DNA of 64,000 nucleotides from Acidobacteriota bacterium (GCA_023265315.1 JAHFUA010000002.1:21266-85265), one strand, 5' to 3'. Shown: positions 9,981 to 33,447, counted from the first letter of the stretch. Notes: generated from the letters alone by a model not told the origin. Translations and numbers: made by a program.

Positions 9981-10245
9981 GCGGGCCTCCTTTTGCCGAA
10001 CTGTCGTCGCCGCCCGTGCGGACGCAGAATGAACGAACTCCCGCTCATATCCACTTAGCAACTTATGCCGGTCCCGGCCCCGGGGTCAGTGATGCCCATC
10101 ACTTTGTGCTGCACCATAGGTCACCGCCGGGAGACGCAGAACTTTCCGCGGCCGCAAGGGTTCCAGAAGAGGAGATGCCTGCCGCTCGCGGCATCTCTGC
10201 TAGGATTAAAGCCATCATCAGCTTTTTTTGTACTGGGGTCCTACG

Positions 10246-10434
10246 ATGTTTGGTGAACTCGGCCTTCCCGAAATCCTGCTCATCCTGGGGATCGCGCTGC
10301 TGCTGTTCGGCCCGAAGAAGCTCGGCGAACTGGGCAAGAGCCTGGGAGAAGGAATCCGCAGCTTCAGGTCGGCGGTGAAAGAGGAGCCGCCCAAGCCCGC
10401 TCCCGAATCGTCCGAGAAGAAAGAGGCCTCGTAA
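10246..10434 (+). CDS. tatA: Sec-independent protein translocase TatA
   Basis: MFGELGLPEILLILGIALLLFGPKKLGELGKSLGEGIRSF. Confidence 0.95.
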   Translation: MFGELGLPEILLILGIALLLFGPKKLGELGKSLGEGIRSFRSAVKEEPPKPAPESSEKKEAS

Positions 10435-10535
10435 GGAGAGCGTCCTGGGGCAGGTCAGCTGCTCTTGCGCTACGCCCGCACCGATTCACACGGTACCACC
10501 CGCAAGTTAGCGCCCGCCGCGGGGCGGCTAAGTCG

Positions 10536-10775
10536 CTAGTCCAAGAGCGTCAACTGGGCTTCCAGGTCGGCGAGCGCCTGGTTCAGCATCTCGCGATGTC
10601 GCGGATTCTGGCTGACCTCCAATTGCTGGAGTACGCGGCTGCGCGAGAGCACGAGCGCCTGGCGGCGGCGCATGCGCTCCGGGTCGTGGTTGTCGTGGTG
10701 GCTGGACTCCTGGTTGCTGGTTTCGGCTGACTCGATCTGTGATTCTATGGACTTGCTTTCCCAACCTCTGGCCAT
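10536..10775 (-). CDS. Small conserved-looking hypothetical protein
   Basis: 80-codon ORF tail MARGWESKSIESQIESAE...LVLSRSRVLQQLEVSQNPRHREMLNQALADLEAQLTLLD; the upstream part of the ORF is antisense to the PilZ gene and not credible. Confidence 0.55.
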   Translation of the reverse strand: MARGWESKSIESQIESAETSNQESSHHDNHDPERMRRRQALVLSRSRVLQQLEVSQNPRHREMLNQALADLEAQLTLLD

Positions 10776-10955
10776 ATTCGCGATTATACGAAGCCCGGCG
10801 CACAAAATCAGGTGCTTGTTCTGGTGCGGTGGTACCGGATGTGTCTGCACATCGTGAATCGATATTAGGTTGCTCGCCGGTACGTCCGTACCCGGACCTA
10901 AAGTAATTTGAGCGTCCACAGGACCGGAGATTACTATCGACAACGAGGTGAAGGC

Positions 10956-11330
10956 ATGGCCACGGAAGTCGTAATGCCGCAGCCGGGGTACGGGAGGATG
11001 CGGCGCTGGCCGCGTTACCGCATCAACGTGCCTGTCCGCGTGCTGGTCCAGAGGCCCGACAAGACGGTAATCGTCAGCGGCCGGGGTATGGAGCTGAGTG
11101 AAGGCGGCATGGCCATTTTCGCCGGCGTCGAACTGAAGGTCGGCCAGCGCGTGGAAATCGAATTCACGCCTCCCTACGACGGCCAGCCCGTGCGCGTGCG
11201 CAGCACCATCCGCAACCGCAACGGCTACAACTACGGCACCCAGTTCCTGCTCCTGAGCCGTGAAGACAACCAGCAGGCCGAGCAGATCCGCCAAGTCTTG
11301 CAGGCGATGGGATCGCCCACGGACGACTGA
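10956..11330 (+). CDS. PilZ-domain protein
   Basis: RRWPRYRINVPVRVLV...GRGMELSEGGMAIFAGVELKVGQRVEIEFTPP. Confidence 0.85.
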   Translation: MATEVVMPQPGYGRMRRWPRYRINVPVRVLVQRPDKTVIVSGRGMELSEGGMAIFAGVELKVGQRVEIEFTPPYDGQPVRVRSTIRNRNGYNYGTQFLLLSREDNQQAEQIRQVLQAMGSPTDD

Positions 11331-11587
11331 ACCGGCACCCAGATCGCGAAGTCCCTACGCCGTCCTGGCGACACCGGCGGGCTCAAACTTCGCCACTAAA
11401 GATTCGATCAGCTCTTCCTTTGCGCGAAGATCGGCCTTGAACCGGTAGTCCTCGGTTTGGCTCTTCAGACCTCAGGTCGATTTGCATGTGAGTGCCTCCG
11501 ACCGACTTTAAGTCTGGTCCTGCTGTGTCCAGGCGGGTGCAGGTGGACGGTCCCAAAACGGGACCAGGCTGTATACTCTGGGCCGCC

Positions 11588-12535
11588 ATGTACCCACAGC
11601 TTGATGCGCGATTGAAGAGCCGCGAACCCGTCCTGCTGGACGGAGCTCTGGGGACGGAACTGGTGCGCCGCGGGGTGCGCTGGCGCAAGCACGGACTGCT
11701 CACTGACGCCGAACGCGTCCTGCGGCTGCATGAGGAGTACCTGGCGGCTGGCGCCGGCGTGATCCGCACCAACACCTTTCAACTGAATCCCCGCATCTAC
11801 CTCAACGTCTTCCGCAACCGCGAGCACATGCGCCACATCGGGGCGCCCGGACTGGAAGAGCTCACGCCCAAACTCCTGCGCACCAGCGTGCGGGTGGCGC
11901 GACAGGCCCGCGCCAATGCAGGCAAGGAGAAGCAGGCGGCGATTGCAGGCGTGCTGGCGCCGCTCGAACACTGCTTCCGTCCCGACCTGGCGCCGGGATT
12001 CGAGCAGGCGCGCGCGGAACAGCGCGAGCTGGCGCACGTCTTCGCCGAGGAGCGTGTCGACCTGCTGCTGGCGGAGAGCATGAACACCATCGCGGAAGCG
12101 CGGGCGGTGGCGGAGGCGGCGCGCGCCGTCGGACTGCCGGTTTGGATAAGTTTTGTCATCGGGCCGGAAGGAGAGCTGCTGAGCCGCGAGCCGCTAGCGC
12201 AAGCCGTGGCCGAGGTGGAGAGGCTGGGCGCGCAGGCGGTGCTGGTCAACTGCGCTCCACCCGCTGAGATCGGCCGAGCTCTCGCCAAAGTCAAAGCGGC
12301 GACGCGGCTTCCCTATGGCGGCTTCGCGCATATCGGGCGGTTCTCGCCGCCGAGCTGGAAGTTCGAATTCTTCCCCCAGTTCAGCGAAACCGAAACCTGG
12401 CCCCCCGAGCGTTACGCCAGCGAAGCCCAGCGCTGGGGGGAGGAGGGCGCCACGATCATCGGCGGCTGTTGCGGCACGACGCCGGCGCACATCGCAGCGC
12501 TGCACGCCCGGCGGGAAGGAGCCAAGTCGGCATGA
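11588..12535 (+). CDS. Homocysteine S-methyltransferase family protein (copy 1)
   Basis: LLDGALGTELVRRG, VLVNCAPP, IIGGCCGTTPAHIAAL zinc-ligand motif. Confidence 0.9.
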   Translation: MYPQLDARLKSREPVLLDGALGTELVRRGVRWRKHGLLTDAERVLRLHEEYLAAGAGVIRTNTFQLNPRIYLNVFRNREHMRHIGAPGLEELTPKLLRTSVRVARQARANAGKEKQAAIAGVLAPLEHCFRPDLAPGFEQARAEQRELAHVFAEERVDLLLAESMNTIAEARAVAEAARAVGLPVWISFVIGPEGELLSREPLAQAVAEVERLGAQAVLVNCAPPAEIGRALAKVKAATRLPYGGFAHIGRFSPPSWKFEFFPQFSETETWPPERYASEAQRWGEEGATIIGGCCGTTPAHIAALHARREGAKSA

Positions 12536-13458
12536 GCTACCAGGCGATCGGCAATAAGCTCGCGGCGGGCGGGACAGTAATCCTTGACGGCGCCATCGGC
12601 ACCGAGATCCTGCGCCGCAACGTCACTTGGGCCGACCACCAACTGGCGAGCCGGCCGGAATTCGTGCGCGGCATCCACGAAGACTATATCCGCGCCGGTG
12701 CCGACGTGATCAGCACCAACAGCTTTCAGCTCTGCCGGCGCGCGCTCTACAACCACTTTCGCGATGAGGTCCACCGCCGGCAGATCGGCTCGACCGACCT
12801 CGACGATCGCGCCAACGAGCTGCTGGCGGCTTCGGTGCGCCTGGCCATCGAAGCGCGCGCGCACGCGGCGGCGGGGCGGCCCGTCGCAGTGGCCGCGGCC
12901 ATCACCACCCTGGAGTGGTGCTTCCGTCCCGACCTGGCGCCGTCGCCCGAACAGGCGAAACGCGAGTACCGCGAAATCTTCCAGGTGGTAAAGGACGCGG
13001 GCGCCGATTTGGTGCTGCTGGAGACGCTGAACAGCATCTCGGAAGCTCGCGCCGCGCTGGAGGTGGCCAAGAGCCTCGGCCTTCCCTGCTGGACCAGCTT
13101 CGTGTGCGACGAACGCGGAAGGTTGTTCACCGGCGAGACCATGGCTGAGATGGTCGCCGCGCTCGAACCGCTGGGAGTGGACGCCATCCTGCTGAACTGC
13201 GCGCCGCCGGGGGACATCAACGCCGGGATGAAGGAATTGCTACCGCACGCACGGGTGGCGACGGGAGCATATCCCCACATCGGGCGCTTCGACCCGCCGG
13301 AGTGGATGTTCACCGACGAGTATCCGCCGGCGCGCTATTTGCAAGTGGCCTCAAGTTGGAAGCAGATGGGAGCGCGGATTCTGGGCGGCTGCTGCGGCAC
13401 CACGCCCGAGCACATCGCGGCGCTGGCGGATCTGCGCGAGAGGCCGGCGCAGGCGTAA
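12532..13458 (+). CDS. Homocysteine S-methyltransferase family protein (copy 2)
   Basis: ATGA overlap with copy 1; ILDGAIGTEILRRN, ILLNCAPP, ILGGCCGTTPEHIAAL. Confidence 0.9.
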   Translation: MSYQAIGNKLAAGGTVILDGAIGTEILRRNVTWADHQLASRPEFVRGIHEDYIRAGADVISTNSFQLCRRALYNHFRDEVHRRQIGSTDLDDRANELLAASVRLAIEARAHAAAGRPVAVAAAITTLEWCFRPDLAPSPEQAKREYREIFQVVKDAGADLVLLETLNSISEARAALEVAKSLGLPCWTSFVCDERGRLFTGETMAEMVAALEPLGVDAILLNCAPPGDINAGMKELLPHARVATGAYPHIGRFDPPEWMFTDEYPPARYLQVASSWKQMGARILGGCCGTTPEHIAALADLRERPAQA

Positions 13459-13507
13459 TGTGCTTCGCAAAAACGCAGACATGTAACAAGCTACGTCTCT
13501 ACAGCTT

Positions 13508-14176
13508 CTACTCCGCCGCCAGTTTCCAGCCCTTGTCTCCGCGAACAAAGGTCAATGCCGCCTGGGCGGGTTCCACTTGGTAAAACGCTACGCCGTATTT
13601 CTGGATGAGTGTGGAGCGGTCCCAGGTATTGAAGCTCTTCACCAGCGGCCCGGAGGCGTCGAAGGCGTTGCCTAGCTCGTTGGGCGCCCATTGCCAGGTG
13701 AACTGCACGTAAGCGATGTCGCGGTTGCTGATGGTGACCTTGGACACGGCAGTCAACTGGCGCTCCGCCAGGGGAACGGTGTAAGCATCCGTGCCATCCG
13801 AGTTCCTAGTCTTTACCACTCCCGGGATGGCGGCCAGCTTGCGCTCACCTTCGGGCGCGAAAGCAACGCTAATGTCGGCGCCCTTGGCCTTGCCCAGCTT
13901 GAGGATGCCGGCTTTTTCCAGCAGGCGGTAATGCGGGTCGCGGATCTTCTCGTCCACGCTGGGCTGCAGCACGCCGACGTGGAAGTGGACGGTGGCCGGC
14001 CCTTCTCCCTTCAGGAATGCCGCGACGAGTCCGGCGGCCTGTTCCTGGGACAAGCTCTTGCTGGGCACCACCCAGTAGCCGATCGTGCCCACGATCACCG
14101 CGATCAGCACCAGGACCAGCGCCAGCGGTATGAAGTACGACGATTCCTTCTGCAACTTAAGTTCTTCTTCGAACAT
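13508..14176 (-). CDS. Membrane-anchored hypothetical protein
   Basis: Single TM near N-terminus (FIPLALVLVLIAVIVGTIGYWVV) followed by soluble domain; start MFEEELKLQ. Confidence 0.6.
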   Translation of the reverse strand: MFEEELKLQKESSYFIPLALVLVLIAVIVGTIGYWVVPSKSLSQEQAAGLVAAFLKGEGPATVHFHVGVLQPSVDEKIRDPHYRLLEKAGILKLGKAKGADISVAFAPEGERKLAAIPGVVKTRNSDGTDAYTVPLAERQLTAVSKVTISNRDIAYVQFTWQWAPNELGNAFDASGPLVKSFNTWDRSTLIQKYGVAFYQVEPAQAALTFVRGDKGWKLAAE

Positions 14177-14370
14177 CGGCACGCTCCCGCGAGGGCCGTC
14201 AAAACCACCCCAGCAAACCGAAGCCGAGTTGGCTGGGGCCCCTGGGTTTGGGGCCGGGGCCCCCCGATAATCCTGCAACTTCCACTATAGGCGGTGGCGC
14301 GTAGGGGTCTGTGACCGCGCTTACAAGCGTGCGTGACGGATGAGCACGCGACCGAAAATCACGGGCGAGT

Positions 14371-14384
14371 GTGATAACGGTCAC
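14371..14384. promoter_or_regulatory. CRP/FNR-like palindrome GTGATAACGGTCAC
   Basis: Exact GTGA-N6-TCAC, 64 bp before TPR gene start. Confidence 0.55.
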
Positions 14385-14448
14385 TGTGCAAGGTGGAACG
14401 GCGTCGTGAAATGGAGGCTGCGGGGCTGTCCGCAGGGCGAGGGATGCC

Positions 14449-15195
14449 ATGAGCAACGGGAAGGTGGTTTCTGTCGAGCGCTGTCCGAGGTGTGGCGCCA
14501 GTTGCGCCCCTAACCACAAGTTCTGCGCGGAATGCGGCAGGTTCCTGCGCGACGAATTCCTGGACCAACGATTGCTGTTGGCGCTGGTGCATGAACGCGA
14601 GGGCCGCAACGACGAAGCCCGCCAGGAGCTGGAGCGCATCCTGGAATCGGATCCCGGCCACGTGCTCGCCAATCATTGGTTGGGGAGTCTGTATTTCCAC
14701 GAAGGCGTGCTGGAAGTCGCGATCCGCTATTACCAGAAGGCGGTCGCGGCGGCGCCGCGCTTCATCCTGGCGCACTATGACCTGGGCGTGGCCTGGTATC
14801 ACCAGGGCAACATGCTGGAGGCGATCCGCGCCTTCCGCCGCTGTCTGGAGATCGACCCGCACTACAACGCCGCCCATTACCGGCTGGCGCTGGCGCTGTT
14901 CCATGCCGGACAACTGGAGGAAGCGCTGAAGCAGTTCGAAGACGCGATCCTCCTCACCCCGGAGTACCTGATGGCGCACTACCACATGGGCGTGATCCAC
15001 GAGCGGCGGGGCGAGATGCAGGCCGCCGAGTGTGCCTTCGAGTACAGCGAGGACCAGGCGGTGGGCGAGGTCAGCAGCCTTTTCCACCTGGCGGTGCTTC
15101 GCCGGGCGCAGGGGGATGTGGCCGGAGCCGAGGAATGTCTGCGGCGAGCGCGCGAGTTCGGGCAGAACCTGTCGCCGGCAACCGTCCGCCCGTAG
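14449..15195 (+). CDS. Zinc-ribbon plus TPR-repeat protein
   Basis: CPRCGASCAPNHKFCAECG zinc ribbon then tandem TPR units (LANHWLGSLYFHEGVLEVAIRYYQKAV...). Confidence 0.85.
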   Translation: MSNGKVVSVERCPRCGASCAPNHKFCAECGRFLRDEFLDQRLLLALVHEREGRNDEARQELERILESDPGHVLANHWLGSLYFHEGVLEVAIRYYQKAVAAAPRFILAHYDLGVAWYHQGNMLEAIRAFRRCLEIDPHYNAAHYRLALALFHAGQLEEALKQFEDAILLTPEYLMAHYHMGVIHERRGEMQAAECAFEYSEDQAVGEVSSLFHLAVLRRAQGDVAGAEECLRRAREFGQNLSPATVRP

Positions 15196-15312
15196 TCGGC
15201 TGGACCAGCCGATTCTCCAAGCGCCTCTCCACGCTACCCACCTTTTTGGATATTTGTGAACTCGGAATCTGTGTCGTAAGCTGGAGTCGCTCAGCGCACG
15301 CGGGGGAGGACT

Positions 15313-15780
15313 GTGCAGGAACGATTCATGCGGAGGGCCATCGCGCTCTCGCTGGAGAACGTCGAGTTGGGCCGGGGAGGTCCGTTCGCCGCCGTGGTGG
15401 TGCGGAACGGCGAGATCATTGGGGAGGGGACCAACCAGGTGACCTCCAGCAACGACCCCAGCGCGCACGCTGAGATGCTGGCGGTGCGGGCCGCCTGCTG
15501 CAGGCTCGCGCATTTCCAACTGACGGGATGCGAGATCTACACCAGTTGCGAGCCCTGTCCCATGTGCCTGGGGCTGATCTATTGGGCACGGCCGGACAAG
15601 GTTTATTACGCCAACACGGCGGAGGATGCGGCCGCCATCGGCTTCGATGACTCGCGCATCTATCGCGAGCTCGAGTCGCCGCCCGCCGCGCGCAGCATCC
15701 CCATGATGCAGATGCTGCGCCACGAAGCTCTGGCCGCATTCCGTGCCTGGCAGGAAAAACCAGGCAAGATTCCTTATTGA
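15313..15780 (+). CDS. Nucleoside/guanine deaminase (cytidine deaminase superfamily)
   Basis: HAEMLAVRAA and TSCEPCPMCLGLIYWAR zinc motifs; GTG start; next to the purine degradation genes. Confidence 0.88.
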   Translation: MQERFMRRAIALSLENVELGRGGPFAAVVVRNGEIIGEGTNQVTSSNDPSAHAEMLAVRAACCRLAHFQLTGCEIYTSCEPCPMCLGLIYWARPDKVYYANTAEDAAAIGFDDSRIYRELESPPAARSIPMMQMLRHEALAAFRAWQEKPGKIPY

Positions 15781-18021
15781 TCGAGATGCAATCCGACTCC
15801 ATGGCCGACCGATTCATTGGTAAGTCCATCCCGCGGAAAGAAGGCCGCGCGAAGGTGACCGGCCGCGCCCTGTACGTGGACGACATGGTGATGCCGGGGA
15901 TGCTCTATGGCGCAACGGTGCGCAGCCCGGTCGCCCGCGGGCGCATCCGCGGGATCCGCTACGCCCAAGGCATTCCCTGGGACGAGTTCACCATCGTCAC
16001 CGCCCAGGACATCCCGGGAAAGAACTGCGTGGCGCTCATGCTCAACGACCAGCCATGTCTTGCGGACCAGGTGGTGAACCACGCGGAGGAGCCGGTGGTC
16101 CTGCTGGCGCACCCGGACCGGTACCTGCTGGAAGAAGCGCGGCGCGCCGTCGAGCTCGACATCGAGCCGCTGCCGGCGGTGTTCACCATTGACGAATCCC
16201 TCGCTAGGCAGCAAGTGGTCTGGGGCGAGGACAACATTTTCAAGTCCTTCCTGGTAGAGTCGGGCGACGTGGAGAGCGCATGGGGCCACGCCCACCTCAT
16301 CGTCGAAGGTGAGTACGAGACTGGCGCCCAGGAGCAGCTCTACATCGAGCCGCAGGGAATGATCGCAACCTTCACCGCGGAGCAAGGATTGACCGTCTGG
16401 GGCTCGATGCAGTGCCCGTACTACGTCCACCGCGCGCTGATGACGTTGCTGGACTTGCCGGTAAACCAAGTGCGGGTGATCCAGACCGAGACCGGTGGCG
16501 GCTTCGGCGGCAAGGAAGAGTACCCGTCGATGATCGCCGGGCACGCCGCGCTGCTGGCGCGGAAGTCGGGCAAGCCGGTCAAGATCGTGTACGACCGCAT
16601 GGAAGACATGGCGGCCACCACCAAGCGGCACCCCTCGCGCACGCGGCATCGCACCGCGGTCACGCGCGAGGGTAAGCTGCTGGCCATGGACATCGAGTTC
16701 GTGGTAGATGGCGGCGCTTATGCCACGCTCTCGCCGGTGGTGCTGTCGCGCGGCACCATCCACGCCGCCGGGCCGTACTTCTGCCCCAACGTGCGCATCC
16801 GCAGCCAGGCTGTAGCCACCAACTTCCCGCCGCACGGGGCGTTTCGCGGCTTCGGCGCGCCGCAGAGCATCTTCGCGCTGGAACGCCAGATGGACCAGGT
16901 CGCCAAAGTCCTCGGCCTCGCTCCCGAGGAATTGCGTCGCCGCAACTTCGTGAAGCAAGGCGAGACGCTGGCGGTCGGGCAGGTGGTGCGGGAAAAAGTT
17001 GACATGGCCGGGCTGATGGAGCGCGCGCTGGAGCTGAGCGATTACTACGCCAAGCGCAAGCGCTTTGCGGAGGAAAATCCTCGTCGCGAGGTGAAGAAAG
17101 GGATCGGCTTGGCGTCGTTCCTGCACGGCGCAGGATTCACCGGATCGGGCGAGCGTTACCTGGCATCGCTGGTCGGGGCGGAGGCGACGCCGGAGGGCCG
17201 CGTGCGCGTGCTGGCCGCCAGCACCGAGATGGGGCAGGGCACAATGACGGTGTTCTCGCAGATCGCGGCTGAGGCCCTGGGCGTGGATTACGACATGATT
17301 GAGATCGTGCAGCCGGACACCGCGGTCGTCCCCAACAGCGGTCCCACGGTGGCTTCGCGTACCTGCATGGTGGTGGGCAAGCTGGTTGAGTCGGCGGTGC
17401 TCGGGATTCGGCAGCAACTCCTGAGTAGCGGCCTGCTGCCGGAGAGATACACATCGGAGCAGTTCCGGCAAGCCTGCCGGCAGTTCATCGAAAATCACGG
17501 CGCTCTGAAATCAAGCAGCGAGTACAGCGCTCCCCCTGGCGTCTACTGGGACGATGACAAGTACCGTGGCGACGCGTACGGTGCCTATGCCTGGGCGGTG
17601 TACGTGGCGGAAGTTTCGGTGGACCTGACGACTTACGAAATCCGCGTGGACGATTTCGTCGCCGTGCAGGAGGTCGGGCGGGTGATCAATCCGGTGCTGG
17701 CGACGGGGCAGATCGAAGGCGGCGTGGCCCAGGGCATTGGCTTCGCGCTCTACGAGAACGTGGTCTGGCAGGAAGGGCAGATGGTCAACAGCCAGATGAC
17801 CAATTACATCATGCCGACTTCCGCCGACCTGCCGCCCATCCGCGTGTTCTTCGAGGAAGTGCCCTACGCACACGGGCCGGGCGGCGCCAAGGGCATCGGC
17901 GAACTGCCCATTGATGGGCCGGCGCCGGCGATCGTGAATGCCATCGAGAACGCCGGCGGGGTGAACGTCAACCGCATCCCCGTCACCCCGGAAGTGCTGA
18001 TGGAAGCGCTGGAGGGCGTGC

Positions 18022-18029: not shown

Positions 18030-18509
<480 letters not shown>

Positions 18510-23099: not shown

Positions 23100-24575
23100 C
23101 TACCCTTTGACCACGGCAACGGGCTCCAGCCGCGCGACTTTCTTGCCGATGCCGGCACGCTCGACAACGTCGACTACGCGCGAGACGTCCTTGTAAGCCT
23201 GGGGCGCTTCTTCCGCCAGCCCCGATATCGAACCGGCGCGCACGGCAATGCCACGGCTCTTCAGCTCCTGCCGCAACTCCTCGCCCCGCACCATCTTTCT
23301 GGCGCGGGCGCGGCTCCACACCCGTCCGGCGCCATGGCAGGTTGAGCCGAAGGTCCGTTCCATCGAATCCAGGGTGCCGATTAGCACGTACGACGCCGTA
23401 CCCATCGAGCCTGGGATCAGCACCGGCTGGCCGATGTCGCGCAGGTCGTCCGGCAACCCGGGCGAACCTGGACCGAAGGCCCGGGTTGCGCCTTTGCGGT
23501 GCACGCACACCTGCATGCGGGTCCCGCCTACCTCGTGTTCTTCGATCTTGGCCATGTTGTGGGCGATGTCGTAGACCTGGTGGAGGTCGAAGGCGAGCAC
23601 CTTGCCGGCCAGTACTTGCTCAAAGGAGCGCCGGATGTGGCCGGCCAGCACTTGGCGGTTGGCGAAGGCAAAATTGGCCGCGCAGGCCATGGCATGGAAA
23701 TACTGCTGCCCATCCTCGGACGCAAAGGGCGCGCACACCAACTCGCGGTCGGGAAGTTCGATGCCGAGGTCGCGCACCGTTTTCTGAAAGCGCGCGACGT
23801 AATCCTCGCAGACCTGGTGGCCGAAGCCGCGCGAGCCGCAGTGGATCTGCACCACTGCCTGGCCGGGGAACAAGCCCAAGCGCTCGGCCACGGTCTCGTC
23901 GTAGACTTCTGTGACGCGATCCACCTCGATGAAATGATTGCCCGCGCCCAGCGTGCCGAGCTGGCCACGTCCACGTTCCCGCGCTTTGTGGGAAACGTAT
24001 TCGGGATCGGCTCCGGGCATGGCACCGAACTCCTCTGTGTGTTCGAGGTCTTCCTTACGGGCGAGGCTGCGCTCTCGCGTCCAGCGCGCGCCTTCCACTA
24101 GCACCTTGTCCAGTTCGGCGTCCTGCAGCTTGATCTCACCGTGGACTCCCACCCCGCTGGGACAGTTGCGATAGATCGCCGAGGCCAGATCGTTCAGGAA
24201 CGGGGAGATCTCTTCCGCTAAGGCTTCCGAAGCCAGCAGGCGCACCCCGCAGTTGATGTCGTAGCCCACACCTCCGGGCGAGATGATGCCATCGGGCAAC
24301 TTAGTAGCGACTACGCCGCCGATGGGAAAGCCGTACCCCTGGTGGATGTCGGGCATGGCGATGGCGTACTTGACGATTCCGGGCAAGGTGGCAGTGTTGA
24401 CCAACTGCTCTACCGAGTTGTCGGTCAGGGACGCCTCAAGCAAGGCTTCGTCAGCGTAGAGCCGGGCCGGCGCTCGCATGTCCTCGCGGAAATCACGCGG
24501 AATCTCCCACACCTGTTCTGAAATACGCTTGAAATCAGAGCGCGCAATCGTGCGAGTTGGAGATGGTTTCCCCAT
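23100..24575 (-). CDS. rtcB: RNA-splicing ligase RtcB
   Basis: [51 protein letters not shown]. Confidence 0.95.
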
Positions 24576-24585: not shown

Positions 24586-24999
24586 TCAAACGTCCACCAC
24601 AAGGGTGGCTTCCCAGCCATCCGGTAGCCGCTCGATTTTCAGACCGTGGAAGGTCACTGCTTTAATGCTACGCCGAATCGAAGCATTGGGCTCACCATGC
24701 AGGGATGCGCGCAGAAAGGTCTCAGAAATTGCGATCACCTGGAAACCGGAATAGGATTCCTGGTGAACGTCCTGAAGATACAGAATCTCGTTTAACCAAT
24801 TCACCAGCAGGGTTTCGCGATCGACGCCTGAAACTTCAACTTCCCGGCTAACGGTTTCCTGAGTGTCTGTGGGTTGCCCCTGGATGGCACAGAGGGCGTG
24901 GGCGGCAAGCACAAACAGCTCGGCCAGGTCACGTCCTCGGACCGTGAAAGCGCGGTCGGCAGTGTGTTCCACTTCCCGGAATTGCGAGTCATTGGCCAT
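24586..24999 (-). CDS. Archease
   Basis: [50 protein letters not shown]; immediately upstream of rtcB. Confidence 0.94.
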
Positions 25000-25091
25000 A
25001 GGCGATCAATCTGAGCGTTGCCAGGAATCGCTCACTTGAATTTTCACCCTTGCTTCCTTGAACAAAATAGCCCCTGCAGACAAACGCTCCA

Positions 25092-25105
25092 GTGACCACG
25101 CTCAC
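25092..25105. promoter_or_regulatory. CRP/FNR-like palindrome GTGACCACGCTCAC
   Basis: Exact GTGA-N6-TCAC upstream of UspA gene. Confidence 0.5.
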
Positions 25106-25173: not shown

Positions 25174-25187
25174 GTGACCGCAATCAC
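25174..25187. promoter_or_regulatory. CRP/FNR-like palindrome GTGACCGCAATCAC
   Basis: Exact GTGA-N6-TCAC, 72 bp before UspA start. Confidence 0.55.
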
Positions 25188-25259
25188 TGCAACATCCCAG
25201 TCCCCGTATTAACCTCAAGATGCCAACATGTTTCTCACCAAAGCGGGAGGAGGTGTCTC

Positions 25260-26126
25260 ATGCCCGTGGTGGAAGGGAAAGCCCGCGTCGCACTCAAGAA
25301 TATCCTGTTCCCAACTGACTTCTCGGAACGCTCAGCCGCGGCCCTGCCCTATGCCGCCGCCGTCGCACGCCGTTACCAAGCCAAGGTCTACCTGGCGCAT
25401 GTGGTCATGATGGAACCGGCGGTTGCACCGGCAGCCGGCCCACCGGTTTCGGACTGGAAAATGGCAGAACAGGAGATGGCGATCCTGGACCGCTGCGATC
25501 TGCTGAACGGGATACCCTACGAGACCCTGGTGGAAGAAGGAGAGATCGGGGATGTGCTCTCCGAGATGATCCGGCAGCGGGAGATCGACCTCATCATTTT
25601 GGGCACACATGGGCGAGGAGGATTCAAGAAGCTGATCCTGGGATCGGTGGCGGAGGAGATCATCCGCGAGGCGCCGTGCCCGGTGCTGGCGGTCGGGCCG
25701 GAAGTGCCATCGCGTGCACAGTTCCCTGGCGACATGCGCCATATCCTCTGTGCCACGGACTTCGGCCCCGGATCGCTTACCGCCCTGGAGTATGCGGTTT
25801 CTTTCGCCGAAGAGAACAGGGCCCGGCTGACGATCGTGCATATCGTGGAGCCTTATAATCCCCTGCTGGCGCCGAAGAGTCGAGAGGACGCGTTCCAGCA
25901 GTTGCTGCCGGCGGACGTGGTTCTGGCCTCGCCGCCGGAGTTCGTCGTCAAGATCGGCTCAGCGGCGGAGGTCATCCTCGAACTGGCTGGTGACAAGCAA
26001 AGCGATTTGATCGTGATGGGCGCCCATGAAACGCCGGTTGGGGCGCTGTCGACTCGTTTGGTCTGGCCGACTTTGCATCGTATCCTTTGTGAGGCGCGGT
26101 CTCCGGTGCTGACCGTACGGGGATAG
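25260..26126 (+). CDS. Universal stress protein, two tandem UspA domains
   Basis: NILFPTDFSERSAAALPYA...ILGTHGRGGFKKLILGSVAEEIIREAPCPVL; second HILCATDFGPGS...IVMGAHE. Confidence 0.93.
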   Translation: MPVVEGKARVALKNILFPTDFSERSAAALPYAAAVARRYQAKVYLAHVVMMEPAVAPAAGPPVSDWKMAEQEMAILDRCDLLNGIPYETLVEEGEIGDVLSEMIRQREIDLIILGTHGRGGFKKLILGSVAEEIIREAPCPVLAVGPEVPSRAQFPGDMRHILCATDFGPGSLTALEYAVSFAEENRARLTIVHIVEPYNPLLAPKSREDAFQQLLPADVVLASPPEFVVKIGSAAEVILELAGDKQSDLIVMGAHETPVGALSTRLVWPTLHRILCEARSPVLTVRG

Positions 26127-26187: not shown

Positions 26188-26201
26188 GTGATTCCAGTCA
26201 C
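26188..26201. promoter_or_regulatory. CRP/FNR-like palindrome GTGATTCCAGTCAC
   Basis: Exact GTGA-N6-TCAC, 89 bp before 26291 ORF. Confidence 0.55.
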
Positions 26202-26290
26202 TGCGCGGCCTTCCAATGGGGTTCAAGATAAAGAAGGGGATGGCCTAGGGCCATCCGGCTGCAGTCGCGAGGATTGCAGGGAGGCAGCAT

Positions 26291-26770
26291 ATGTTTTCGA
26301 TTCGATTGGTCCAACTGATCGAGGCCCACGCTGACAAGCTGTCTCAGGGGCTGATGCACAGCCTCGAGACTTCGCCGCGATCGAGCGAGCTGTTGCGCAA
26401 GGTGCCTGCCGACGAATTAAACAGCCGGGTGCAGGAGATCTATCGCAATCTCGGCGACTGGTTGCTGACCAAGACCGAGTCGGAGATCGAAGAGAGATAC
26501 ACCGGCTTGGGCATGCGGCGGGCGCGGCAGGGCGTGCCTTTCAGCCAGTTTGAGTGGGCTATCATCCTTACCAAAGAATATCTGTGGCAACACCTGGAGA
26601 GCGAAGGCCTGCTGGAGGAACCCGTCGAACTTCTGGGCGAACTGGAGCTGCTCCACAACCTGGAGCGGTTCTTTGATCGGGCAATCTATTTCGCCGCTGT
26701 GGGCTATGAGAGCGCGTCCGGGCACGAGGCGGCGCATCGAGGCGCCGCGCCGGCGGCAGCGCGGCGATGA
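26291..26770 (+). CDS. RsbR/histidine-kinase N-terminal (globin-like) domain protein, stand-alone
   Basis: All-helical; VQEIYRNLGDWLLTKTESEIEERYTGLGMRRARQGVPFSQFEWAIILTKEYLWQHL. Confidence 0.6.
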   Translation: MFSIRLVQLIEAHADKLSQGLMHSLETSPRSSELLRKVPADELNSRVQEIYRNLGDWLLTKTESEIEERYTGLGMRRARQGVPFSQFEWAIILTKEYLWQHLESEGLLEEPVELLGELELLHNLERFFDRAIYFAAVGYESASGHEAAHRGAAPAAARR

Positions 26771-26834
26771 TCGGTCTCGGGGGTGACGGATCGCCTGAGA
26801 CCAACGCAACCGCCTAAGCAACACGGAGGTCATT

Positions 26835-27314: not shown

Positions 27315-27475
27315 GACTCGGAGTCCGGGCCAGGAACAGTGCCTGGGTCACACGGACCGCAAAACGCGGCAGGGGTGTCTTCGGCAGGCCACGGCTCTCC
27401 TAGTCAGCCACAGCCCGCGGCACTATAACCTTGCCACAAGCCTCAGCCATCCCCGGATCTCCATCCGCGAAATGC

Positions 27476-28825
27476 TCAGTCGCGAGTGGCTATAAGCACT
27501 CCTGCTGGGCCTGGCAGAGGCACACGGCGTATGTCCCGGAAGCCGGCCTCGGCAAGCCAGGCCGCGTACTCCGGCTCGCTGTAGCTGCTGCCAGCGCGCG
27601 TGCCCACCAGCATGTTAAGCGAGAACAGGGCGGCAAACCGGGGCGCGGTCTTCTCCGGCTCCAGGATGAAATCCTGCACCAGCACGCGTCCTCCGGGAGC
27701 AAGAGCGGCATGCACCCGCTGGTAGAGCGCGCGGTTTTCTTTCGGTGAAAACATGTGGCAGATAGCGGAGAGCAGCACCAGGTCGAAACCGTGTCCTAGG
27801 GGATCGCGGAGCATATCCCCGACGCGCGCGTGGATGCGGCCGACGAGACCCGCCCTGCGAATGTACTCCTGGGTGAGCGGGAGGACATCGGCGAGGTCCA
27901 GCACTTCGGCCGTCACGCCGGAATTCGCCCGGGCAAAGGCGATGGAGTATGCGGCGGACCCGCCTCCCAGGTCGAGGATGCGGCGGATGCCCTCCGTTCC
28001 CGCGGCGTTCACCACCGCCTGAGATCTCTCCCGGGCGTTGCGGTCCATGGCGGCGATGAACGTGTTCACCCATTCGCCATCGCCCGTTTTTGGGGCCGGC
28101 GTTCCCGCGCGCACCGATGCGGTGAGGTTGGACCAGCGGTGCCAGAGATTAGCCGTGTGCAGCAGGGCTTTGCGGGCGCTGTCCGGAGAGGCTTCCGCGA
28201 AGAAACGCGCGCTCAGCGGCGTGTTGCGGAAGATTCCATTCTCCTTGCGCAGCAGCTTCAGGGCGGCAAGCGCATGGAGAAGCATCTCCGTGCCTCGCCG
28301 GCTGGACTGGATCCTCTCGGCCACGGCGTCGGCGGACGCGCCGCCGGCAAGCGCCGTGAAAACGTCCAACTCCAGCGCCGTCAAAACCGTCCGGCTGAAC
28401 ATGAATCCGCGGATCAGTTCGTTGATGTCGTCGGGTAAGGCACCGGCCTGGTCCCTAGCCTTCAGCATGGCGCGATACTGGTTGCCATGTTCGGTGATCA
28501 GCGCCTTCATCGCCGGGGCATCGTTCCACACCAGCCGCGACACGGGTTTGCCGGATCGCAAGTGCGACGCAACGATCTCGGGCACGTCCGCAGCCTTCAC
28601 TCCCCGGTACCAGACGCCATCGGGGTAAATGATTACCACTGGGCCCTCGTCGCACAGCCCCAGACATCCGCAGGTCGTGACCTGAACTTCGCCGGCAGCG
28701 CCCTCGATATCCAATTCGCGGTTTAGGGCGGCGAGCACATCCCAGGAGCAGGCGGCGGAACAAGAGTTCACACCCTCCGGCTTTTCCTGCCTGCAAACGA
28801 AGACGTGATACTGGAACGGTTCCAC
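27476..28825 (-). CDS. Thioredoxin-like [2Fe-2S] ferredoxin domain fused to SAM-dependent O-methyltransferase-like domain
   Basis: N-term CRQEKPEGVNSCSAACSWDVL...TTCGCLGLCDEGPVVIIYPDGVWYRGV; then ILDLGGGSAAYSIAFARANSGVTAEVLDLADVL...GHGFDLVLLSAICHMFSPKEN...APGGRVLVQDFIL. Confidence 0.88.
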   Translation of the reverse strand: MEPFQYHVFVCRQEKPEGVNSCSAACSWDVLAALNRELDIEGAAGEVQVTTCGCLGLCDEGPVVIIYPDGVWYRGVKAADVPEIVASHLRSGKPVSRLVWNDAPAMKALITEHGNQYRAMLKARDQAGALPDDINELIRGFMFSRTVLTALELDVFTALAGGASADAVAERIQSSRRGTEMLLHALAALKLLRKENGIFRNTPLSARFFAEASPDSARKALLHTANLWHRWSNLTASVRAGTPAPKTGDGEWVNTFIAAMDRNARERSQAVVNAAGTEGIRRILDLGGGSAAYSIAFARANSGVTAEVLDLADVLPLTQEYIRRAGLVGRIHARVGDMLRDPLGHGFDLVLLSAICHMFSPKENRALYQRVHAALAPGGRVLVQDFILEPEKTAPRFAALFSLNMLVGTRAGSSYSEPEYAAWLAEAGFRDIRRVPLPGPAGVLIATRD

Positions 28826-28920
28826 TGTGTCCTCCTTCTAAACCCGTCTCCTAAATCGTCAATGGTGGCTGCGAGCTGGTCCGCAGGGGCTAAAACCCGC
28901 ACAAATACAGAACCTTCAGC

Positions 28921-28940
28921 GGCACGGCTGAAGCCGTGCC
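28921..28940. repeat. REP-like palindrome GGCACGGCTGAAGCCGTGCC
   Basis: Perfect inverted repeat, intergenic. Confidence 0.5.
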
Positions 28941-28957
28941 CTCCCCGGAGAATCGGC

Positions 28958-30202
28958 TTACAGAGCGATCAGCTCCGGCCGCTTCATCTGGCTTCGCACT
29001 GCTACCGACAAGCGGCGGATGCCCTCGCGGATCCGCTCCGGCGGTGCGTTGGAAAAATTCAGCCGCAGGTGACGACGCCCCTCGTCGCCGGTGGCGTAGA
29101 AAGAGTCGCCGGGCACGAAGGCCACGTTTTGCTGCAATGCCGCGTCGAAGAGCGTCTGACACTCGATGTCCGCCGGCAGGGTCACCCACAGGAACAAGCC
29201 TCCCGCGGGATGGGTCCATGTGACCTGCGGCGGAAAGAATTCCTGGAGCGCTGCCAGCATGGCATCGCGACGCTCGCGATAGACCTGCCGGATCTTCTTG
29301 ACGTGCTCATCGAGAAAGCCGTCGCGCGCCACCTCGTAGGCCACCACCTGGACGAAGGTGCTGGTGTGCAGGTCTGCCCCTTGCTTGAGCTGCACGAGCC
29401 TCGTGATCACTTCCGGCGGAGCCACGATCCATCCCAGGCGCAGACCCGGGGCCAGCGTCTTAGAGAAAGTGCTCAGATAGATCACGTTGCCCAACCGATA
29501 GCCGTCGTCGCGCTGCAGGTTTTCGCGGTCGGCCACGATCAAGGGCGCCAGGTGCTGCCCTTCATACCGCAGTTGACCGTAGGGATCGTCCTCGATGATG
29601 GGAATGCCGTACCGGTCGGCCAGGAGCACCAATTCGTGCCGCCGTCCTTCCGATAGCGTCACCCCTCCCGGATTCTGGAAGTTCGGCAGGATGTACATGA
29701 ACTTCGGTCCGGAGCGCAGCGCTTCTTCCAGCCGCTCGGTCTGCACTCCATCGTCATCGATAGGAACCGAGACGTACTGGGCGCCATAAACATCGAAAGC
29801 CTGAAGTGCACCCAGGTACGTCGGCGCCTCGACCAGCAAGCGGTCGCCGGGATTGACCAGCAGTTTCCCGATCAGATCCAGCGCCTGCTGGGAGCCGGAG
29901 GTGATCAGGACGTTGTCCGCAGCAGCCACGACCCCATAGCGAGACATGTTCTGGGAGATCATCTCCCGCAGCGGAGCGTAACCCTCAGTGGTGCCGTACT
30001 GCAGAGCGCAGGCCCCCTTCTCCGCCAGGACTCGCTGGCAGGCTTGCTGGAATCGCTCGATGGGAAACAATTCCGGCGCGGGCAGGCCGCCGGCGAAGGA
30101 TATAACTTCGGGGCGCTGGGTCAGCTTCAGCAACTCGCGGATCACCGAACTCTTGATGACCTTCGTCCGCTGTGCAAAGCGATAAGTCCAAGACGTTGAC
30201 AT
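28958..30202 (-). CDS. PLP-dependent aminotransferase (MocR/2-aminoadipate transaminase-like, fold I)
   Basis: VISFAGGLPAPELFP, YGTTEGYAPLREMI, IIEDDPYGQLRYEG, YLSTFSKTLAPGLRLGW. Confidence 0.9.
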   Translation of the reverse strand: MSTSWTYRFAQRTKVIKSSVIRELLKLTQRPEVISFAGGLPAPELFPIERFQQACQRVLAEKGACALQYGTTEGYAPLREMISQNMSRYGVVAAADNVLITSGSQQALDLIGKLLVNPGDRLLVEAPTYLGALQAFDVYGAQYVSVPIDDDGVQTERLEEALRSGPKFMYILPNFQNPGGVTLSEGRRHELVLLADRYGIPIIEDDPYGQLRYEGQHLAPLIVADRENLQRDDGYRLGNVIYLSTFSKTLAPGLRLGWIVAPPEVITRLVQLKQGADLHTSTFVQVVAYEVARDGFLDEHVKKIRQVYRERRDAMLAALQEFFPPQVTWTHPAGGLFLWVTLPADIECQTLFDAALQQNVAFVPGDSFYATGDEGRRHLRLNFSNAPPERIREGIRRLSVAVRSQMKRPELIAL

Positions 30203-30322
30203 GCATCCCTCCGACACACACCACACAGTTTAATTCTCAATCGTCGCCTCTTGGAAAGGCTGTGATCTGGATTACGGGCCTTGGTGCGCTCTGGAGGCGT
30301 GTGCCGCGCCTCACGAACTCTG

Positions 30323-30336
30323 GTGACAGGACTCAC
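30323..30336. promoter_or_regulatory. CRP/FNR-like palindrome GTGACAGGACTCAC
   Basis: Exact GTGA-N6-TCAC, 90 bp before 30427; degenerate neighbour GTGATCTGGATTAC at 30262-30275. Confidence 0.55.
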
Positions 30337-30426
30337 TGCGCGGAGATACAAGAAACCAATAACCTGTTGATAAAGAACGCCCCCTCGCAGCCGCTTCATT
30401 GCGGCCAACGAGCTTGGAGGTGTGTT

Positions 30427-31176
30427 ATGTTGCCGGTGTTCTGGCTCGTGCTCCTGGTCATTGGTACCTGCATCTCTCTGCTGATGCTGGGGCTCGGGGG
30501 AAAAGCAATCTACAACCGCTATCGCGGAGGCCGGGCAGTCACCTGCCCGGAAACTCACCAGCAGGTCGGGGTGAGATTCGATGCGCTGCGTGCGGCCGTC
30601 ACCGAATTGAGCGGAAGGCCCGCTTTTCGCCTCGCTGACTGCACTCGCTGGCCCATGCGCGCCGATTGCGGCCAGGAATGCATCCCGGAGGCACTCGAAA
30701 CCGCGCCGTATACCAAAGGCGAAGTCGATCTGCCGAAAACCAAGAAGATCTATCACCTTCCGGTGCTGATGGCCGCTTTTGCGGCTTGGGTCTTGGGGGC
30801 GCTCTGGCATTCGCAATACCTGCTGCGCCCATCCTGGACGCAATCGCTAGGGCTGAGCCCAGCCGATCTGCACCGCATCGTCAGGTGGTGGGCTCCTCAC
30901 CTGCTCAGCGTAACGGCCTGCCTTCTGTTTGCCTACGGTGCGGCGTGGCTTTTCGCCTGGCAGGGAGGAAAACGTGCCCGGCAGGGGATCATCACGTCGA
31001 TCTCTCTTTGGTTGGCCGTGGCGGCAGCCAGTCTGCTGGTTACGGGTTGGGCAGGAATCCCAGGAGATCTGCTGAGGATTGAGGCTGCTTACACGTTCCT
31101 GGCGAGCGTCGTGATTGGCGCAATCATCGGTGGGTTGAGCGGCAGACTGGGGGAATCGGCGTTCGAACAGCAGTGA
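30427..31176 (+). CDS. Multi-pass membrane protein of unknown function with Cys-containing loop
   Basis: MLPVFWLVLLVIGTCISLLMLGLGGKAIYNRY...LADCTRWPMRADCGQECIPEA...four further hydrophobic segments. Confidence 0.7.
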   Translation: MLPVFWLVLLVIGTCISLLMLGLGGKAIYNRYRGGRAVTCPETHQQVGVRFDALRAAVTELSGRPAFRLADCTRWPMRADCGQECIPEALETAPYTKGEVDLPKTKKIYHLPVLMAAFAAWVLGALWHSQYLLRPSWTQSLGLSPADLHRIVRWWAPHLLSVTACLLFAYGAAWLFAWQGGKRARQGIITSISLWLAVAAASLLVTGWAGIPGDLLRIEAAYTFLASVVIGAIIGGLSGRLGESAFEQQ

Positions 31177-31303
31177 GAGGCGATCCGCGACTTCTGCGTC
31201 CAACCGTGCCTGCCCACGCCGTTGTGCAACCCCGCGTCACGTTTATTGGTCACAGACACGGCATCACGGCTATGGTAAGCAAGGGCACGCTCGGAGGTGC
31301 CCC

Positions 31304-32122
31304 GTGGCTTATGGAAGCTTGCGTCACCTGCGATTGGCTTTTCTCGGCGCCGGAAGCATCGCCGCGCCGCTAATCGAGCGCCTGGTGAAGTCAGGCGCCA
31401 TCTCACCCGAAAACATCCTTGCTACCGACGGGCGACCGGAGCGCCTGGTGGAAATGCAGCGGCGGTTCGGTATCATGGTCTCGCCGCATAACAGCGCGGC
31501 AACCTCTTTCGCTGATTCCATTCTTCTCTCTGCACCCCCCGACGTGGCAGCAGCCGTGCTCGCTGAATTGCGTGGCCGCCTGGCTCGCGACCAGTTGATC
31601 ATCTCCCTCGTCGCTGGCGTTACCACCGCGGTGATAGAAGATCATCTGGGACAGGCGATCGCGGTGGTGCGCGTGGTTCCCAACCTTCCGTGTACTGTCG
31701 GTTGTGGCGTGATCCCCTACTGCCTGGGCCGGTACGCAAAGCCTTCCGATCAGGGGCGGGCAACGACGCTGCTGTCCGTCTTGGGGTGTTCTGTCAAAAT
31801 CCGCGAGGATCAGATGAATGCCGCCGCGGCGGTCACTGCGGCTGGTCCCAGTTACATCTTGCCGGTGATCAAGACGCTGATCCAGGCGGCCGTGCGGAAT
31901 GGACTGGCGGAAGGCGAGGCTCGCTCCCTGGTGGCACGTATGGTGCGGGGAACGGGGGAGCTGGCGGCAGAAACCCGAGAGGACTTGGACACGCTCACCC
32001 TGAAGATCGGCGCCAGTATCCCCAACGAAGAACAGGTGTGTGCCTTATTCACTGAAGCCTTCGAAACTGCAATGAAGAAGCTGACCGGGGAGGAGAAAGA
32101 ACCTGCGGCCGCGGCAGCGTAG
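31304..32122 (+). CDS. proC: Pyrroline-5-carboxylate reductase family protein
   Basis: LAFLGAGSIAAPLIERLVKSG, VVPNLPCTVGCGVI, AAAVTAAGPSYILPVI; GTG start. Confidence 0.85.
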   Translation: MAYGSLRHLRLAFLGAGSIAAPLIERLVKSGAISPENILATDGRPERLVEMQRRFGIMVSPHNSAATSFADSILLSAPPDVAAAVLAELRGRLARDQLIISLVAGVTTAVIEDHLGQAIAVVRVVPNLPCTVGCGVIPYCLGRYAKPSDQGRATTLLSVLGCSVKIREDQMNAAAAVTAAGPSYILPVIKTLIQAAVRNGLAEGEARSLVARMVRGTGELAAETREDLDTLTLKIGASIPNEEQVCALFTEAFETAMKKLTGEEKEPAAAAA

Positions 32123-32188
32123 GTCGTGGAAGCACAAACGTCAAACGAGCAGCGTGTTGCTCAAGCACTTAGAAAACTGGAGACGCCG

Positions 32189-33313
32189 ATGAAAACTACC
32201 CTGACAGTAATCAAGGCCGACGTGGGGTCCATCGGGGGGCACATCATGCCCTCCAAGCGGCTGCTGGCGCGGGTGCAGGAAGTGGTGGAGTCCGCCGGCA
32301 AGGCGCTGATCCAGGATCACTACATCGGTTTTACGGGCGACGACATCGCCATCCTCATGACCCACACCCACGGAGTGCGGCACGAGCAGGTGCACAAGTT
32401 GGCGTGGGATGCCTTTGTGGCCGGAACCGCCATTGCCAAGGAGGAAGGCCTCTACGGCGCCGGGCAGGACCTTCTGAAGGATTCTTTCTCCGGCAACGTC
32501 CACGGTCTGGGGCCGGCGGTTGCGGAAATGGAGATCAATGAACGTCCCAACGAGCCGTTCCTGTTCTTTGCCGCCGATAAGACCGACCCCGGGGCGTACA
32601 ACCTGCCGCTCTTCCTCACCTTTGCCGACGTAATGACCACTCCGGGCCTGATTCTGTCCCCCAAGCTCAGTCAGGGCTTCCGCTGGGTCGTCATGGACGT
32701 AAATCACACCGAGGGTGACCGGGTGATCGAGTTGGTCACGCCAGAGGAGATCTACGATCTGGCAGCGCTGCTGCGCGACAACGAGCGCTTCGTGGTGGAG
32801 TCGGTATGGTCGCGGGCCAGCGGCGAACAATGCGCGGCCGTCGCTACTTCCCGGCTGCACAACATTGCCGGCAAATATACGGGCAAGGACGATCCGGTGA
32901 TGATGGTGCGCACGCAGATGGACTTTCCGGCTACCGGGGAGGTGCTGGCGCCCTATGCCATCGGGCATTTCGTCGCCGGCGGCATGCGCGGCTCGCACAA
33001 CATGCCGCTGATGCCGGTGGCGCTGAATACGCCCACGTCGTATTTCGACGGGCCTCCGCTGGTCTCCTGCGCCGCCTTCTGCGTCCATGGCACCAAGCTG
33101 ACGGAGCCAGCCGACTGCTTCGCTCATCCCTTGTGGGACGAAGTGCGGGCACACGTCAGCCGCAAGGCCATCGACATGCGACGCCAGGGGTTCAATGGCG
33201 CTGCCATGCTGCCCATGGCTGAACTGGAGTACACCGGCGTCATGGACAAGCTGGCCAAGCTGGAGAAACGCTTCACGGTGCGTGTCCAGAAGAAGCCAGC
33301 GGCTGCGGCCTGA
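32189..33313 (+). CDS. Fructose-1,6-bisphosphate aldolase/phosphatase (archaeal type, bifunctional)
   Basis: MKTTLTVIKADVGSIGGHIMPSKRLL...GFTGDDIAILMTHTHG...EPFLFFAADKTDPGAYNLPLFLTFADVM. Confidence 0.93.
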   Translation: MKTTLTVIKADVGSIGGHIMPSKRLLARVQEVVESAGKALIQDHYIGFTGDDIAILMTHTHGVRHEQVHKLAWDAFVAGTAIAKEEGLYGAGQDLLKDSFSGNVHGLGPAVAEMEINERPNEPFLFFAADKTDPGAYNLPLFLTFADVMTTPGLILSPKLSQGFRWVVMDVNHTEGDRVIELVTPEEIYDLAALLRDNERFVVESVWSRASGEQCAAVATSRLHNIAGKYTGKDDPVMMVRTQMDFPATGEVLAPYAIGHFVAGGMRGSHNMPLMPVALNTPTSYFDGPPLVSCAAFCVHGTKLTEPADCFAHPLWDEVRAHVSRKAIDMRRQGFNGAAMLPMAELEYTGVMDKLAKLEKRFTVRVQKKPAAAA

Positions 33314-33365
33314 GGAGCGACGTCACAAGCTGTAAGTTAGACGGGGACGACTCGAAAGGAGCCAT

Positions 33366-33409
33366 GCGGGGCGTGATCTGATCGCAGTCGATCACGCCTC
33401 TTGCCCCGC
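33366..33409. terminator. Nested inverted repeat downstream of FBP aldolase/phosphatase
   Basis: GGCGTGATC (33370-33378) / GATCACGCC (33390-33398) plus outer GCGGGGC / GCCCCGC. Confidence 0.4.
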
Positions 33410-33433
33410 CCCCCGCGTCGCTAACTCGCTAGA

Positions 33434-33447
33434 GTGATATTCGTCAC
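33434..33447. promoter_or_regulatory. CRP/FNR-like palindrome GTGATATTCGTCAC
   Basis: Exact GTGA-N6-TCAC in the intergenic region before livKHMGF. Confidence 0.5.

What the first reader, a model, noticed from the sequence alone, without database searches (positions are those of the whole stretch)
10089..33447. Candidate CRP/FNR-family regulon: seven intergenic GTGA-N6-TCAC palindromes in 23 kb
Seen directly: GTGATGCCCATCAC (10089), GTGATAACGGTCAC (14371), GTGACCACGCTCAC (25092), GTGACCGCAATCAC (25174), GTGATTCCAGTCAC (26188), GTGACAGGACTCAC (30323), GTGATATTCGTCAC (33434), plus degenerate GTGACCGCGCTTAC (14311) and GTGATCTGGATTAC (30262). Eight fixed bases predict about one match in 64 kb, yet seven lie in the small intergenic fraction. 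Flanks converge on (A/G)GTGA-N6-TCACT. Downstream genes are tatA, a zinc-ribbon TPR protein, UspA (two sites), an RsbR-like protein, a membrane protein and the liv operon. Most sites are 64-143 bp before the start codon; the liv site is about 300 bp before. Inference: one regulator coordinates a stress, energy or low-oxygen programme.
Basis: partly seen in the sequence, partly recalled or inferred. Interest (0 to 1): 0.72.

Follow-up and report, generated by a model that had tools for sequence, protein, structure and literature searches.

The report
Acidobacterial FNR-type regulon, CRP-type sites
The repeated DNA palindromes are real switches: they belong to a genome-wide set of about a hundred promoters in soil Acidobacteriota that a CRP/FNR-family protein probably turns on when oxygen is scarce, and next to that protein's gene most relatives keep a matching protein that lacks the DNA-binding part and may act as a brake.

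Summary
Observation confirmed: seven exact GTGA-N6-TCAC sites, all intergenic, against 1.2 expected. Genome-wide there are 121, against 9 for the reversed pattern. The N6 spacer is unique (49 intergenic; 1-8 for any other spacer). A sigma70-like -10 lies 32-33 bp downstream of 33/55 site centres (mean 4 at other offsets), so these are class II activator sites (about -41.5). Predicted targets look anaerobic or redox-related: UspA, ResB, c-type cytochromes, heme synthase, Mo-oxidoreductase, acyl-CoA-dehydratase activase, Rrf2.
Beyond the finding: many operators carry a third half-site (TCAC-N8-GTGA-N6-TCAC; 38 genome-wide, 0 in control). Across 70 genera of the family its abundance follows one regulator (Spearman 0.81). 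That regulator has an FNR-like four-cysteine pattern, a CRP-like recognition helix (SRETVTR) and conserved sites around its own gene. In 16 of 17 genera with a close orthologue, an HTH-less paralogue is encoded directly downstream, behind such an operator.
tatA is probably not the target, and divergent gene pairs usually have one site each. Oxygen sensing and the HTH-less protein's role are inferred, not shown. Several paralogues could share the sites.

The parts
10089..10102 (-). operator GTGATGCCCATCAC; class II -10 TAAGTT at 10060-10065 for gene 9979-9581 (-)
   Evidence: PWM score 18.0
14311..14324 (-). degenerate operator GTGACCGCGCTTAC with third half-site GTGA at 14332; -10 TATAGT (14284-14289) for gene 14176-13508 (-)
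   Evidence: score 14.2
14359..14384 (+). three-half-site operator TCACGGGCGAGTGTGATAACGGTCAC (palindrome 14371-14384); -10 TGAAAT 14407-14412 for zinc-ribbon/TPR gene 14449
25092..25105 (-). operator GTGACCACGCTCAC; -10 TATTTT (25064-25069) for archease gene 24999-24586 (-)
25174..25187 (+). operator GTGACCGCAATCAC; -10 TAACCT (25210-25215) for UspA gene 25260-26126
26188..26201 (+). operator GTGATTCCAGTCAC; -10 CAAGAT (26224-26229) for gene 26291-26770
   Evidence: a homologue G205:C11:7374 has a tandem operator at 7221-7256
30262..30275 (-). degenerate operator GTGATCTGGATTAC; -10 GAGAAT (30233-30238) for aminotransferase gene 30145-28958 (-)
   Evidence: score 14.8
30311..30336 (+). three-half-site operator TCACGAACTCTGGTGACAGGACTCAC (palindrome 30323-30336); -10 TAACCT (30360-30365) for DUF1761 membrane protein gene 30427
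33434..33447 (+). operator GTGATATTCGTCAC; -10 AAAAAT/TAAAAA about 33470-33476; next gene is the liv substrate-binding protein (33746), which implies a leader of about 260 nt
25260..26126 (+). two-domain UspA (predicted target)
   Evidence: Pfam Usp 1.5e-52; a 44% homologue G023:C90:44303-45157(-) has a tandem operator at 45226-45251
24586..24999 (-). archease (predicted target; rtcB, 23100-24512, lies next to it)
   Evidence: Pfam Archease 4.3e-32; RtcB
9581..9979 (-). small protein with a signal-peptide-like N-terminus (predicted target of the 10089 site instead of tatA)
   Evidence: -10 geometry; no Pfam or NCBIfam family
   Evidence: Pfam TatA_B_E 3.2e-19

Best explanation
The palindromes are operators of a CRP/FNR-family class II activator. 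A homodimer binds CWGTGAY-N4-RTCACWG centred about 41-42 bp before the transcription start, replacing the -35 element, and recruits polymerase (shown: position relative to the -10; inferred: activation). The main regulator for the three-half-site operators is most likely the protein of contig C1 (locus L016, 1018-1734). Its sensor end is FNR-like (Cys13, Cys16, Cys25 as C-x2-C-x8-C, plus Cys112) and its recognition helix is CRP-like (SRETVTR), which fits GTGA half-sites. I infer that it holds an O2-labile Fe-S cluster and switches on micro-oxic or anoxic genes. At many promoters a third half-site, 8 bp upstream and on the same DNA face, probably anchors a second dimer. The regulator's gene is flanked by its own operators. 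In most close relatives one of these drives a neighbouring paralogue with the sensor and dimer helix but no DNA-binding domain. I infer that this acts as negative feedback, by forming heterodimers that cannot hold a full palindrome.
For: Spacer uniqueness and intergenic bias; 121 against 9; -10 at 32-33 bp in 33/55 sites against a mean of 4.1 and maximum of 9 elsewhere. Third half-site: TCAC-N8-GTGA 31 against a median of 2; 38 against 0 genome-wide; it lies upstream in 17/40 promoters with a positioned -10 and downstream in 3, expected 0.13. Replication in 48 orthologous loci: N6 201, N8-outward 129, background about 6. Operator abundance follows the C1 regulator across 70 genera: rho 0.81; median 35 in genomes with an orthologue of at least 77% identity against 2 in the rest. 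Sites before and after the regulator gene in nearly all intact orthologous loci. Cysteines and SRETVTR conserved. Target functions. HTH-less paralogue: 25 loci, 160-172 aa, dN/dS 0.22, predicted beta-roll plus dimer helix and nothing after it.
Against: No experiment. C-x2-C-x8-C is longer than E. coli FNR's C-x2-C-x5-C, so cluster binding is untested; the closest solved relatives by sequence are CRP types. At least two other full-length paralogues have the same helix type. Single GTGA-N6-TCAC sites are also abundant in genomes without the C1 orthologue (e.g. G054: 160 against 15 control), so single sites may belong to other paralogues. In the window's own genome the HTH-less gene has lost the cysteines and the outer half of the distal site is poorly conserved. 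The AlphaFold model of the full-length protein was poor (mean pLDDT 58). Regulon lists cover 64% of the genome and use my own gene calls.
Confidence: 0.72

Rival explanations
1. The sites are ordinary CRP sites served by a cAMP-responsive CRP orthologue, a carbon or energy regulon with no link to oxygen.
For: Consensus close to CRP's TGTGA-N6-TCACA; CRP-like helix; CstA (carbon starvation) and liv genes among targets; CRP chains are the best structural relatives.
Against: The sensor lacks the CRP cAMP-cassette arginine at the equivalent place (GKPYELTA against GPRTSSA in Mtb CRP) and has four conserved cysteines instead; targets are rich in O2-sensitive or anaerobic enzymes.
Confidence: 0.15
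2. Several CRP/FNR paralogues (C1, C16, C110) share or partition the sites, so there is no single regulon; the three-half-site class belongs to C1 and the single sites to others.
For: Three full-length proteins with SRETV(T/S)R; the C16 gene has its own perfect tandem operator upstream; single sites also occur in genomes without C1.
Against: A single consensus fits both classes; the third half-site tracks C1 specifically.
Confidence: 0.45
3. The palindromes are parts of interspersed repeats or transcription terminators, not operators.
For: Intergenic location; the -2 C and +2 G flanks extend the symmetry.
Against: Flanks and the central 6 bp differ in every copy; there is no T-run; the positioned -10 at 32-33 bp has no reason in a repeat.
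Confidence: 0.02
4. The HTH-less paralogue is not an antagonist but an independent redox sensor, metal or heme chaperone, or a decaying gene.
For: It has its own Cys motif but no equivalent of Cys112; in the window's genome it has lost the cysteines; in a sister clade the same promoter position drives a heme b synthase (AhbD-like) gene instead.
Against: Uniform length of 160-172 aa and dN/dS 0.22 in 25 loci argue against decay; the dimer helix is retained.
Confidence: 0.35

Closest known systems
Escherichia coli FNR regulon (class II activation, [4Fe-4S] sensor)
   Same: Activator sites about -41.5; four cysteines (E. coli C20, C23, C29, C122; PMC5398030, PMC6659574), three N-terminal and one in the beta-roll; anaerobic targets
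   Different: DNA half-site is CRP-like GTGA, not TTGAT; cysteine spacing x2/x8 instead of x2/x5; third half-site at 22 bp; HTH-less partner gene
E. coli CRP (cAMP receptor protein)
   Same: Half-site GTGA, N6 spacer, recognition helix SRETV-R, class II geometry
   Different: No cAMP-cassette arginine in the regulator; cysteine cluster; anaerobic targets
FnrL (Rhodobacteraceae; NCBIfam NF045989)
   Same: Among the best-scoring family models to include the N-terminal region (E 9e-15, far below cut-off); O2-labile Fe-S regulator
   Different: Not a member by NCBIfam cut-off; different binding site (from general knowledge)
Tandem class I + class II (class III) CRP-dependent promoters
   Same: Two dimers upstream of one promoter
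   Different: Here the fixed distance is 22 bp, back to back, and usually only one half of the distal site is conserved

Membership tests
CRP/FNR superfamily | N-terminal cNMP-type beta-roll plus C-terminal Crp winged helix | tested here: met
   PF00027 1.1e-17 and PF13545 2.6e-19 in the C1 regulator
CRP/FNR superfamily | Palindromic operator with fixed N6 (or N4) spacer | tested here: met
   Only N6 is enriched
FNR (oxygen-sensing) subfamily | Three N-terminal cysteines plus one in the beta-roll | tested here: met
   C13, C16, C25 and C112 invariant or nearly so in 21 sequences
FNR (oxygen-sensing) subfamily | E. coli-type spacing C-x2-C-x5-C | tested here: not met
   C-x2-C-x8-C
FNR (oxygen-sensing) subfamily | O2-labile [4Fe-4S] cluster | not testable with these tools
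   needs anaerobic purification and spectroscopy
FNR (oxygen-sensing) subfamily | Recognition helix with E--SR, site TTGAT-N4-ATCAA | tested here: not met
   Helix SRETVTR; site GTGA-N6-TCAC
CRP proper (cAMP-responsive) | Recognition helix RE--R and GTGA half-site | tested here: met
   Invariant SRETV-R; consensus
CRP proper (cAMP-responsive) | cAMP phosphate-binding cassette with Arg-Ser/Thr-Ala | tested here: not met
   GKPYELTA in place of GPRTSSA (Mtb CRP) by alignment; cAMP binding itself not tested; PRK11753 score 81 against cut-off 266
Class II activator-dependent promoters | Site centre about 41.5 bp before the start, -10 about 32 bp downstream, no separate -35 | tested here: met
   -10 enriched only at 32-33 bp; start sites not mapped

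The most novel reading that the evidence does not exclude
A two-component oxygen switch in soil Acidobacteriota. An FNR-type activator with a CRP-type DNA code works together with a co-encoded FNR that lacks its DNA-binding domain. Homodimers fill the palindrome, while activator/HTH-less heterodimers, having only one reading head, either block activation or occupy the single third half-site 8 bp upstream, so that operator architecture (two or three half-sites) reads the ratio of the two proteins.
Probability: 0.2. Interest if true: 0.8.

Novelty: new variant of a known kind. Interest (0 to 1): 0.58.

Why it matters
Acidobacteriota are among the most abundant soil bacteria, and I found no description of their oxygen-response network in the papers I could search. 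This gives a testable regulon, operator code and regulator. It also adds two features that I could not match to a described CRP/FNR system: a fixed 22-bp back-to-back operator with a third half-site, and a conserved HTH-less FNR paralogue encoded next to the activator. The sites come with predicted start points, so start-site mapping or one ChIP experiment would test them.

Tried and rejected
Repeat-element or terminator reading: rejected (copies differ, positioned -10s). tatA as target of the 10089 site: disfavoured by -10 orientation. A hypoxia story from window genes alone: insufficient, so genome-wide targets were annotated. UspA orthologues in six related genomes: homologues are only 35-44% identical with paralogues, and just one of eight has a clear tandem operator right upstream, so this test is weak. 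Archease orthologues are nearly absent from the related genomes. The AlphaFold model of the full-length regulator was too poor to use. Literature searches found no acidobacterial FNR/CRP regulon and no HTH-less FNR partner; the superfamily survey by Matsui et al. 2013 was not held.

Full report
Observation. The motif is 7.2 times denser between genes than inside genes, and only the spacer N6 stands out: 49 intergenic matches, against 1 to 8 for every other spacer from 0 to 20. The whole genome has 121 matches, against 9 for the pattern read backwards. The matrix built from them reads CWGTGAY-N4-RTCACWG and finds 73 intergenic sites where column-shuffled matrices find 8.

Promoter geometry. Aligning sites by their downstream gene, a -10-like hexamer sits 32-33 bp downstream of the site centre in 33 of 55 sites. 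Other offsets give 4.1 on average and 9 at most. This is the spacing of class II CRP/FNR activation (site near -41.5, standing in for the -35). It lets targets be assigned by strand. In the window, 14311, 25092 and 30262 point to minus-strand genes, while 14371, 25174 and 30323 point to plus-strand genes in the same three divergent regions. The site at 10089 points away from tatA.

Third half-site. A scan of half-site pairs between genes shows two peaks and little else: GTGA-N6-TCAC (48, median 3) and TCAC-N8-GTGA (31, median 2). Three-half-site operators TCAC-N8-GTGA-N6-TCAC occur 38 times in the genome, 0 times in the reversed control, and twice in the window (14359 and 30311). Of 40 oriented sites with a positioned -10, 17 have the exact extra half-site upstream and 3 downstream; 0.13 are expected. 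The extra half lies so that a second dimer would be centred 22 bp upstream, on the same face of the DNA. In this genome its outer half is poorly conserved.

Targets. Among genes behind good sites are four two-domain UspA proteins, ResB (cytochrome c assembly), two c3/c7-type multihaem cytochromes, a heme b synthase-like radical SAM protein, a molybdopterin oxidoreductase, an acyl-CoA dehydratase activase, an Rrf2 regulator, a ferredoxin, CoA-transferase III, FTR1 and CstA. The mixture fits a low-oxygen or anaerobic programme. This is an inference from annotation.

Regulator. The genome has five PF13545 matches, four over the family cut-off. Three full-length proteins carry an SRETV(T/S)R recognition helix, which in CRP reads GTGA. 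The one on contig C1 also has C-x2-C-x8-C at its N-terminus and a fourth cysteine (DPCQV) in the beta-roll, the arrangement, though not the spacing, of FNR's four ligands (E. coli positions from PMC5398030 and PMC6659574). In a 149-genome sample of the phylum the three-half-site operator is abundant only in genomes with a close C1 orthologue. In 70 genera of the family its count correlates with identity to C1 (Spearman 0.81): median 35 in the 17 genomes with an orthologue of at least 77%, and 2 in the others. Among 48 orthologous loci from named Acidobacteriota genomes, nearly all intact ones have operators before and/or after the regulator gene, with the same N6 and N8 spacings. This is conservation plus likely autoregulation.

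HTH-less paralogue. In 25 of those loci with an intact reading frame the gene after the regulator encodes a 160-172 aa protein with the cysteine motif, beta-roll and dimer helix, ending where the winged helix should begin. It is under purifying selection (dN/dS 0.22). The predicted structure (pLDDT 81) confirms a sensor domain and a 33-residue helix with nothing after it and matches CRP/FNR sensor domains. A conserved three-half-site operator lies between the two genes. Of 17 genera with a regulator orthologue of at least 77%, 16 have the HTH-less neighbour. In a sister clade (70-74% identity) the same operator position drives a heme b synthase-like gene instead. In the window's own genome the HTH-less copy (C1:11053-11511) has lost the N-terminal cysteines.

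Mechanism. Shown: operator sequence, spacing, promoter position, phyletic link to the C1 regulator, and the conserved gene pair. Inferred: Fe-S oxygen sensing, activation, cooperativity at the third half-site, and negative feedback by the HTH-less protein. Open: division of labour among paralogues, because single sites also abound in genomes without C1.

Known or new. CRP/FNR regulons with class II sites are textbook. The combination of FNR-like cysteines with a CRP half-site, the fixed 22-bp three-half-site operator and the conserved HTH-less partner has no match in the papers I could search. That is an absence of evidence in a partial library.

Noticed in passing
G000 contigs C118:18143 (L139), C131:3898 (L148), C143:14034 (L078): Three intergenic sites share an identical different core, TGACAAAAGTCA, each with a -10-like hexamer about 32 bp downstream. 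They may be sites of another CRP/FNR paralogue, such as the one on C143 with helix TVRELVSR.
   Followed up: partly
G000 genome, intergenic: The palindrome AGGG-N6-CCCT is also strongly intergenic (24 against 6 in genes). It is possibly a repeat or another operator.
   Followed up: no
L018 about 2458-2493 (G000:C16:40479-40514): Two perfect palindromes exactly 22 bp apart (GTGATGCGCATCAC-N8-GTGACAAGAGTCAC) precede the second FNR-like paralogue, which has N-terminal cysteines but no DPC-type fourth cysteine.
   Followed up: partly
L186 5955-7220, L189, L192, L197: In the 70-74% clade the regulator is followed by a heme b synthase-like (AhbD) radical SAM gene and, further on, a HemA-like reading frame, behind a doubled operator: a link between oxygen control and heme synthesis.
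   Followed up: partly
window 33448-33745: If the 33434 site drives the liv gene, the transcript has a leader of about 260 nt; its function was not examined.
   Followed up: no
window 26291-26770: Protein family without a Pfam or NCBIfam name, present in 17 of 18 related genomes, often in two or more copies.
   Followed up: partly
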